Source: Leptospiraceae bacterium (lineage in GTDB: Bacteria; Spirochaetota; Leptospiria; Leptospirales; Leptonemataceae). From it: a stretch of 64,000 bases of DNA. The DNA lies in contig BPKM01000009.1 of the NCBI GenBank assembly GCA_026005135.1, positions 1 through 64,000 on the forward strand, in the 5' to 3' direction. Positions 51,772-53,966 of the stretch are shown here, piece by piece. Position 1 is the stretch's first letter. Each line of letters begins with the position of its first letter. The position numbers and the translations under genes were made by a program. The notes beneath the pieces are model-generated. The model was not told where the DNA came from. It saw only the letters and a program-made list of their open reading frames with translations, and did not search any database.

Positions 51772-52000
51772 TTTTTTTTCTTTTTTTATACAATCAAGTT
51801 ATAATATCATTATTAAAATATTTTAATATTTTAAGACAAACCTATTAATTAGGATAGCATTATCGAATTTATACTATTACTTTAATTTTTTTTTTTGATA
51901 AAACAAAAAAATTCAATTTAAATTTAACGAACTATCAAATCTAAGCGTCATATATTAACAAAAGCAAAATCAATAAGTTTTGCTTATTAAAATATAATCA

Positions 52001-52189
52001 GGGTCGGTTGGGTGGGCGGGTTGACTAAAAACGCCGTTGGGTTTACAAAACGGCATCCCAACAATAAAGGGTCTTGGGTGGGTGGGAAAAAAACCGTCGG
52101 CGGGTCTCCCGACGACAACTGGAGGGTGGGCGGGCTGACAAAAAAAACGTCGCTGGGCTATGCACAGCGACAACAATAAAGGAGGAAAT
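52001..52189 (+). promoter_or_regulatory. Three tandem G-tract + hairpin modules in the 5' leader of the 52190 lipoprotein gene
   Basis: GGGTGGGCGGG (52010), GGGTGGGTGGG (52076), GGGTGGGCGGG (52134), each followed by an A-rich stretch, a GC hairpin (GCCGTT/AACGGC; GTCGG/CCGAC; GTCGCTG/CAGCGAC); ACAAC after modules 2 and 3, CCAAC after 1; AATAAAGG ends modules 1 and 3. Confidence 0.7.
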
Positions 52190-53966
52190 ATGAATAAAAT
52201 AACGAAAAACAAATGGTTAATATTAAGCCTTAGCTTATTAATAGGGATTAGCTTATCAAGCTGTGGTAAGAAAAAATCAGGTGCGCTGTTACTTCCAGAT
52301 TTAATTGAAGGTCAAGGGGGACCAGAAGTATCTCCAGATAATCCAAAAACAGCACAGGAAGAAACAACAACTCAAGAAGAAGCACCATCATTACAGGTTG
52401 TTGATGATACAGGAGCTGTGGATACAGGAACTATCAATAATAATACAACTTCTAACAATCAAGATTCTTCTACTGGTGTAATTGAAATACCCAATAATCA
52501 AATACCTCATGATAATTCTTCTGATTCTGGAAGTGATAATCAAGATTCTTCTAAAGAAGTAGTTGAAATACCCAATAATCAAATACCTCATGATAATTCT
52601 TCTGATTCTACTAGTGAAAATACAGCTATCAATAATTCAGAAATTAAGGAAGCTATAACAGATGAAGATGTAGCAGAAGATCCACAAGAAACTACAGTTG
52701 CAAGTGATACAGAAACTTCACAAGTTAGTGAAGAATCTAATAATGGAACAGAAGTAGCAAGTGATACAGGAAGCAATCGAAGAAGAAGCTATAAGTGAAG
52801 AAGATGCTCAAGAAGAAGTAGCAGCAGAAGAAGAGGAAGCAGAAGAAATAGCAGAAATTGAAGAATCAGACGATGGAGAAGGTGTAATTTCTAAAGAAGA
52901 TAAGGAAGGCAAAGAAAAAGATAAATCTGACAAAGAAGATAAAGAACATGGTAAATGCAAAGTTAAAATAAAAGAAATCGATACATCTAAAGGAAGATGG
53001 TATAACACAGAAGAATCTTTATTACCACATCCTAAAAAACAAGGTAAATTTATTAAAGCAAAAGGTATCCATACATACTGGGCAAATCAAAAACTCTTAG
53101 TAAAAGTAGATAATAATTGCGAAGGTGGTAAATATAAATTAGTTGTAGTAGCAAAAAACCTTGGTAAATTACCAGAATGGTACCATTATTTTAATGTTAA
53201 AGTATTTAACGAAAAAACTGGTGAAAACTTAGGTACTATGCTAATTCGTGCAAGCGATAAAAGCTACCATAGAGGTAGATTAATAATTACTCTACCAGAA
53301 GGAGAAAGTATATTGAATATTTTATGGACAAATGATGCATACAAAGAAGGTGAATATGATGCGAATATTCAAATCAAAAGAATAAAAATCAAAAAAATTA
53401 AACATCACAAAGAAAGAAAACAAATTTTATCTCGAAAAGGAAGTCGATTCTGCGATACACATGGAAGATGGTTTGTAGGAACCAATCCACCATCTGCATA
53501 TACATATTGGGCAAATCAAACAATATCTTATTGTCTTAGAACCCAAAAAGCAGGTAAATACGAAGTTATCGTAAGAGCTGGTAATGCCAAAAATGGTTAT
53601 CCTTTAATGCCAGAATATAAAGAATTTAAAATCTTGGTTGCAGCTAATGGTAACTCTAACTATATTACAATACCAGCAGAACAAGGTAAATATCATAAAG
53701 GTTCTACCACATTGGATTTACCAGAAGGTGATATTGTTCTAAATATTACATGGTTAAATGATAAATATCAACCTGATAAAGAACTTGATGCAAATATTGA
53801 AATTGTTCGTGTTCGTCTAAAACGAGTTGGTGATATTGAATCTCCAATATCAGCTTTCTTATTACAAAATCCAAATTTAACATACAAAGTAGTAATTCCT
53901 AGTATTATTTTGATTCTCGGTGCTCTTGGAATGATCTACTGGCTAAGAAAAGAAAAAGTAGCCTAA
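52190..53966 (+). CDS. Acidic repeat lipoprotein with two CBM-like domains and a C-terminal TM segment; split by an apparent 1-nt frameshift
   Basis: ATG at 52190 after AAAGGAGG; lipobox ISLSSCGKK; ORFs 52160-52798 and 52761-53966 fuse to ASDTEAIEEEAISEEDAQEE if one G is removed from GATACAGGAAGC; two YWANQ...LPEG...LNI.W.ND.Y...DANI.I repeats. Confidence 0.7.
52461..52612 (+). repeat. In-frame 81-bp (27-aa) direct repeat in the lipoprotein gene
   Basis: AAGATTCTTCT...GAAATACCCAATAATCAAATACCTCATGATAATTCTTCTGATTCT twice. Confidence 0.9.

What the first reader, a model, noticed from the sequence alone, without database searches (positions are those of the whole stretch)
52001..52189. Triple G-tract/hairpin leader in front of an acidic lipoprotein gene
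In a strongly AT-rich genome, this 190-nt leader has three tandem modules of the form GGGTGGGYGGG - A-rich - GC hairpin, with ACAAC after modules 2 and 3 and AATAAAGG ending modules 1 and 3. Stem sequences differ between modules while pairing is kept (GCCGTT/AACGGC, GTCGG/CCGAC, GTCGCTG/CAGCGAC), which argues for selected RNA structure. Each module adds a fourth GGG near the hairpin, so a four-tract G-quadruplex is possible. The last module runs into the Shine-Dalgarno. Possible roles: tandem riboswitch or thermosensor, or quadruplex control of translation. It matches no riboswitch class I recognise.
Basis: partly seen in the sequence, partly recalled or inferred. Interest (0 to 1): 0.8.

Follow-up and report, generated by a model that had tools for sequence, protein, structure and literature searches.

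The report
Tandem quadruplex-hairpin gene-start leaders
An AT-rich spirochaete (Leptospiraceae-like) carries, just in front of about two dozen unrelated genes, repeated RNA-leader modules that each combine a four-tract guanine-quadruplex motif with a conserved hairpin, which looks like a natural, copyable cassette for tuning how strongly a gene is translated.

Summary
The 52001-52189 leader has three G-box + hairpin modules ending at the Shine-Dalgarno (SD). A covariance model finds about 75 such modules in this 3.4 Mb, 26% GC genome, in tandem arrays of 1-8. They lie at 23 gene starts, always in sense and ending next to the SD (rplJ, recA, clpP, hsp20, ppdk, ccoN, ccoP, acs, lipoproteins). 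Three decayed copies lie elsewhere. A sister MAG (Leptospiraceae SKW199) has nine such leaders, four at the same genes (this lipoprotein, recA, ppdk, an acidic zinc-ribbon gene). The other 46 genomes searched in the class have none, and no Rfam family matches. The stem covaries strongly. The G-box is a self-contained four-tract quadruplex motif with variable loops (37 of 47 distinct boxes, against 4 of 46 chance GGGNGGG sites); the hairpin GGG is not needed as fourth strand. A riboswitch is unlikely, because the genes are unrelated. Best explanation: a cis-acting mRNA quadruplex/hairpin module that raises or insulates translation initiation. Its nearest known analogue is an engineered hairpin + RNA quadruplex 5'UTR that increases translation up to 12-fold (PMC11087576). 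Transcription, quadruplex formation and the direction of the effect are untested here.

The parts
52001..52020 (+). module 1 G-box GGGTCGGTTGGGTGGGCGGG (five G-tracts)
52033..52054 (+). module 1 hairpin GCCGTT / AACGGC with loop GGGTTTACAA
   Evidence: covarying stem
52069..52086 (+). module 2 G-box GGGTCTTGGGTGGGTGGG (four full GGG tracts)
52095..52114 (+). module 2 hairpin CGTCGG / CCGACG
52121..52134 (+). module 3 G-box GGAGGGTGGGCGGG
52149..52171 (+). module 3 hairpin GTCGCTG / CAGCGAC, apical GC pairs in the loop, followed by ACAAC-type tail
52178..52185 (+). Shine-Dalgarno AAAGGAGG directly after module 3; outside the hairpin
52190..52798 (+). acidic lipoprotein gene, first frame (202 aa from ATG 52190); continues after a frameshift
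   Evidence: orthologue in sister MAG intact over at least 498 aa (L145)
52761..53966 (+). remainder of the lipoprotein gene in another frame, with CBM60-like carbohydrate-binding stretches
51951..51996 (+). imperfect hairpin just upstream of the array (AGCAAAA..TTTTGCT core); a similar one precedes the sister MAG's module
   Evidence: reading of L145; weak

Best explanation
The leader is one member of a dispersed, cis-acting mRNA-leader family. Each module is a four-tract, short-loop G-quadruplex motif, an A-rich linker of about 10 nt, a 5-7 bp hairpin and CAAC(T/C)CTAA; the last module ends within about 10 nt of the SD. Co-transcriptional folding of the quadruplex(es) and hairpin leaves the SD single-stranded and puts a stiff, bulky barrier directly upstream. 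The barrier is proposed to raise and insulate translation initiation of the gene behind it, wherever that gene sits in an operon. Copy number and hairpin variants would set the strength. Shown: anatomy, covariation, four-tract rule, strict sense placement at the SD, conservation at four orthologous genes, lineage-specific gain at others. Inferred: transcription, quadruplex formation in RNA, increase rather than decrease of translation, tuning by copy number.
For: Covariance model R1 finds 83 matches (E<=1; about 75 at E<0.01) in this genome. Stem covariation: 101 double-change cells vs 26.9 shuffled, and it collapses when slid. Four-tract rule: 37 of 47 distinct boxes have at least 4 tracts, mostly [2,3,3,3], [3,2,3,3] or [3,3,3,3], loops 1-4 nt of T/A/C, against 4 of 46 chance GGGNGGG sites. 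All start-adjacent arrays are in sense; the gap from last G-tract to SD is 33-43 nt in 22 of 28 (median 39.5). Orthologous leaders in G003 for lipoprotein (L145), recA (L101), ppdk (L103/L158) and the acidic zinc-ribbon gene (L104); chance overlap of 9 and 23 genes would be about 0.07. Arrays sit inside short intercistronic gaps: 13 nt after the upstream ORF at ccoN, 60 nt after rplA at rplJ, 32 nt at G003 ahcy; the orthologue without the array has an ordinary short spacer with the SD kept. Genes behind arrays have codon usage nearer ribosomal-protein genes than background (p = 5e-5). Precedent: engineered hairpin + RNA quadruplex 46 bp upstream of the SD raises translation in vitro and in E. 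coli (PMC11087576).
Against: No transcript, probing or expression data exist here. In the published work the hairpin was 5' of the quadruplex, and quadruplexes about 20 bp from the start codon lowered translation, so the sign of the effect is uncertain; some sister-MAG leaders have the quadruplex only 11-13 nt from the SD. Many boxes have one GG tract, so a three-layer quadruplex would be imperfect. Two single-box leaders (clpP, L018) fold without a predicted quadruplex. Most arrays are not shared between the two species. Codon bias may reflect base composition.
Confidence: 0.5

Rival explanations
1. Transcription-level element: G-quadruplex or R-loop in the non-template DNA strand of the leader raises transcription (or re-initiation) of the gene.
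For: G-tracts are always on the non-template strand; the authors of PMC11087576 state that non-template G4 enhances transcription.
Against: Placement is tied to the SD, not to a promoter; the hairpin and CAAC-CTAA spacing to the SD are conserved; arrays occur in intercistronic gaps as short as 13-60 nt.
Confidence: 0.15
2. Binding array for a global RNA-binding regulator (tandem protein sites, positive or negative), the hairpin and G-box together forming the site.
For: Loop pattern GG-Y-T-(T/C/A)-.-C and CAAC tail conserved beyond what stem pairing needs; unrelated target genes suggest a regulon.
Against: Hairpin is missing at several leaders, including orthologous ones (L050 first leader, L084, L104, L105); no partner protein identified; box loops vary freely in letter.
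Confidence: 0.15
3. Dispersed repeat family of the REP/MITE kind, tolerated upstream of genes, with little function of its own.
For: Hairpin-bearing, multicopy, clade-restricted, variable between species and strains; three decayed copies away from genes (L081, L151, L152).
Against: All start-adjacent copies in sense and ending at the SD; conserved at four orthologous genes; covarying stems and the four-tract rule need selection; decayed copies are those not at gene starts.
Confidence: 0.12
4. Terminator array acting on antisense transcription (hairpin followed by U-tract on the minus strand) that shields gene starts.
For: 26 of 29 modules have a T-rich tail after the stem on the antisense strand; one scores as terminator-like in the window.
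Against: Tails are often interrupted (GATTATCTTT, GTATTAAGTC) in a 26% GC genome; does not explain the G-box, which is kept where the hairpin is absent, nor the fixed distance to the SD.
Confidence: 0.05
5. Riboswitch or RNA thermometer.
For: Structured leader touching the SD; one target is hsp20.
Against: No Rfam match; targets have no common metabolite; SD is not paired in the module; no conserved unpaired ligand pocket beyond the loop.
Confidence: 0.03

Closest known systems
Engineered hairpin + RNA G-quadruplex 5'UTR translation enhancer (Lee et al. 2024, PMC11087576)
   Same: Four-tract RNA quadruplex plus hairpin in the sense strand upstream of the SD; reported G4-to-SD distance 46 bp, here mostly 33-43 nt to the last G-tract; translation-level effect in bacteria.
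   Different: Synthetic, single quadruplex, hairpin 5' of it; here natural, tandem (1-8 modules), hairpin between quadruplex and SD, dispersed over about two dozen genes. Enhancement not shown here.
Native bacterial rG4s found by rG4-seq (Shao et al. 2020, PMC6974567)
   Same: RNA quadruplexes with regulatory effect in bacterial mRNAs.
   Different: Isolated sites (e.g. in the hemL coding region), no module, hairpin, tandem array or fixed SD spacing described in the parts read (abstract and outline).
REP / MITE-type palindromic intergenic repeats
   Same: Dispersed short hairpin-bearing repeats, in tandem clusters.
   Different: Here oriented and placed at the SD, with covarying stems and a quadruplex motif; no transposase or target duplication established.
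Tandem riboswitches and RNA thermometers
   Same: Structured modules in leaders, sometimes in tandem.
   Different: No Rfam match, no shared pathway, SD not masked.

Membership tests
RNA G-quadruplex translation enhancer (as in PMC11087576) | Four G-tracts with short loops on the mRNA strand upstream of the SD | tested here: met
   37 of 47 distinct boxes vs 4 of 46 controls
RNA G-quadruplex translation enhancer (as in PMC11087576) | Adjacent hairpin | tested here: met
   Covarying 7-pair stem in most modules; absent in a minority of leaders
RNA G-quadruplex translation enhancer (as in PMC11087576) | K+-dependent quadruplex in the transcript | not testable with these tools
   Only predicted: MFE falls by 20 to 43 kcal/mol with quadruplexes allowed in several leaders, none predicted in two single-box leaders
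RNA G-quadruplex translation enhancer (as in PMC11087576) | Raises protein output at equal mRNA | not testable with these tools
   Codon-bias shift of target genes is indirect support only
Known riboswitch / RNA family | Match to an Rfam covariance model | tested here: not met
   Only 5S rRNA and two tRNAs in the window reach gathering scores
RNA thermometer | SD sequestered in a heat-labile helix | tested here: not met
   SD lies about 8 nt after the hairpin and is unpaired in the quadruplex-aware fold of the window leader
REP/MITE repeat | Multicopy dispersed palindrome | tested here: met
   About 75 modules
REP/MITE repeat | Placement independent of gene orientation and start | tested here: not met
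   23 of 26 sites in sense at an SD; 3 decayed exceptions
REP/MITE repeat | Mobilising transposase, target-site duplication | not tested
   Array-free orthologous spacers were seen but upstream sequence is too diverged to define junctions
Intrinsic terminator | GC hairpin followed by U-tract on the sense strand | tested here: not met
   0 of 29 modules in sense

The most novel reading that the evidence does not exclude
A natural class of bacterial leader RNA: a copyable quadruplex-hairpin cassette whose tandem copy number acts as a gain dial for translation, acquired gene by gene by one AT-rich Leptospiraceae clade.
Probability: 0.3. Interest if true: 0.85.

Novelty: new variant of a known kind. 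Interest (0 to 1): 0.72.

Why it matters
RNA quadruplexes in bacterial 5'UTRs are known mainly from isolated sites and engineered constructs. Here a genome appears to have evolved a similar design (quadruplex plus hairpin before the SD), multiplied it in tandem and spread it to unrelated genes. That gives a natural system in which 'do quadruplex leaders raise translation, and does dose matter' can be tested directly, and a portable set of graded expression leaders.

Tried and rejected
Exact module pattern in 85,462 species genomes: four contigs, two of them chance (Planctomycetota, Mycobacterium), two true (SKW199 and a contig of this same species under another label). The viral collection gave one chance hit in 69% GC DNA. 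Coding function of the repeats rejected: unit lengths vary (about 48-66 nt) without keeping frame. SD-decoy reading considered: some boxes (GGGAGGUGGGUGGG, -14.8 kcal/mol) pair with a generic anti-SD, but the core GGGUGGGCGGG pairs worse (-7.7) than real SDs (-8.7 to -12.0). Fourth strand supplied by the hairpin GGG rejected as a rule, because boxes already have four tracts and some hairpins lack GGG. Raw GGGNGGG counts are not diagnostic: genomes without the modules have similar numbers. A literature search for quadruplex leaders in Leptospira found nothing relevant.

Full report
OBSERVATION. GGGTGGGYGGG occurs three times in the window, all here. In the whole assembly GGGTGGGNGGG occurs 18 times, against about 0.04 expected from base composition; 16 are in leaders of this kind and two are in coding DNA.

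A FAMILY. I pulled the DNA around GGGNGGG sites. Many were the same module in tandem in front of other genes. An alignment of 30 modules gave a seven-pair stem with 38 double-sided-change cells against 11.5 in shuffles. The covariance model R1 finds 83 matches at E<=1, about 75 of them at E<0.01, in this genome. On 80 distinct aligned matches the stem has 96.3% of cells paired and 101 double-change cells against 26.9 shuffled, and sliding the partner by 1-3 columns destroys it. The aligned copies are related to each other, so the shuffle figures are not probabilities; but at least nine different stem sequences keep pairing. No Rfam family matches.

ANATOMY. G-box; linker of about 7-14 nt; stem of usually GTCGNY-type with loop GG(Y)T..C; CAAC; (T/C)CTAA; then either the next G-box or the SD. 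The box itself holds four G-tracts: 37 of 47 distinct boxes have at least four tracts of two or more G (two more if a G6 run counts as two), 13 have four of three or more, with loops mostly of 1-4 nt in which T, A and C all occur. Among 46 GGGNGGG sites outside the modules only 4 have four tracts by a laxer rule. Fixed tract number with free loop letters is what a quadruplex needs and what a linear protein or anti-SD site does not. With quadruplexes allowed, the predicted MFE of the window leader falls from -58.4 to -78.4 kcal/mol, of the sister-species leader from -17.8 to -41.5, and of the rplJ leader from -75.6 to -118.8; in clpP and L018 none is predicted.

PLACEMENT. In this genome 23 sites end at an SD and start codon, all in sense. 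Targets checked by Pfam or by reading: rplJ (L10), recA, clpP, hsp20, ppdk, ccoN and ccoP, acetyl-CoA synthetase, AMP-binding enzyme, di-haem cytochrome c peroxidase, a 4Fe-4S protein, DctP, bactofilin, Mpo1-like, TetR, several lipoproteins. One array, at C5, is followed by an IS110-like transposase and looks like a duplicated ppdk leader hit by an insertion. Three weak copies (L081, L151, L152) lie in intergenic DNA without a start codon and are decayed. The gap from last G-tract to SD is 33-43 nt in 22 of 28 leaders. Several arrays occupy short intercistronic gaps: 13 nt after the upstream ORF at ccoN, 60 nt after rplA at rplJ, 52 nt at hsp20, 32 nt at the sister ahcy. This favours action on the mRNA over a promoter.

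COMPARISON BETWEEN SPECIES. Of 48 genomes of the class, only this one and G003 have modules. G003 is the MAG 'Leptospiraceae bacterium SKW199', by identity of contig JAOACE010000023. G001 and G002, same genus, have none. G003 has nine such leaders, some with the G-box only. Four are at genes that also have them here: the window's lipoprotein beside divergent glmS (three modules here, one there, L145), recA (L072, L101), ppdk (array here, G-box only there; L122, L103) and an acidic zinc-ribbon protein (L014, L104). Chance overlap would be about 0.07 genes. Others are gained in one species only: rplJ and ccoN here, ahcy and etfA there; the orthologue without the array keeps a short spacer and its SD. 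A contig of this species filed under Sericytochromatia (L112; 97.7% identical over 1.95 kb) has the same seven-module array but a different last hairpin, with pairing kept on both sides.

FUNCTION. The target genes share no pathway. Their codon usage is nearer that of ribosomal-protein genes than of 94 background ORFs (Mann-Whitney p = 5e-5, 13 of 20 above the 90th percentile); the shift is small and partly a matter of A/T-ending codons. Lee et al. (PMC11087576) showed that an RNA quadruplex 46 bp upstream of the SD, with a hairpin, raises translation up to 12-fold in vitro, with the same trend in E. coli, without changing mRNA level, stability or SD accessibility, and proposed a physical barrier that biases ribosomes toward the start codon. 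They also cite loss of translation when a quadruplex lies about 20 bp from the start. The natural modules have the same parts at a similar distance, so enhancement or insulation of initiation is the best reading, at about even odds. Transcription, quadruplex formation and sign of effect remain inferred.

VERDICT.

Noticed in passing
window 52761-52798: The lipoprotein gene is split by a frameshift; its orthologue in G003 (L145) is intact over at least 498 aa. The acidic zinc-ribbon gene in L014 is likewise shifted here but intact in L112, so small assembly indel errors are likely.
   Followed up: partly
L112 (BPII01000034.1): Contig labelled Candidatus Sericytochromatia is 97.7% identical to this spirochaete's C3 contig: mis-binned.
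   Followed up: yes
L109 (G000:C5:222300-225189): Array with ppdk-like upstream sequence is followed by a disrupted start and an IS110-like transposase reading frame: apparently a duplicated ppdk leader hit by an insertion.
   Followed up: partly
L081 and L152: Two decayed single modules share about 80 bp of similar flanking sequence downstream, away from any gene start.
   Followed up: no
L153 770-3894 (G000:C6): Reading frames that look like type III CRISPR (Csm/Cmr-like) genes lie upstream of the rplK operon; not tested.
   Followed up: no
L144 start and L147 start (G003 C9, C22): Sister-MAG contigs break inside module arrays, so arrays in short-read assemblies are probably undercounted.
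   Followed up: no
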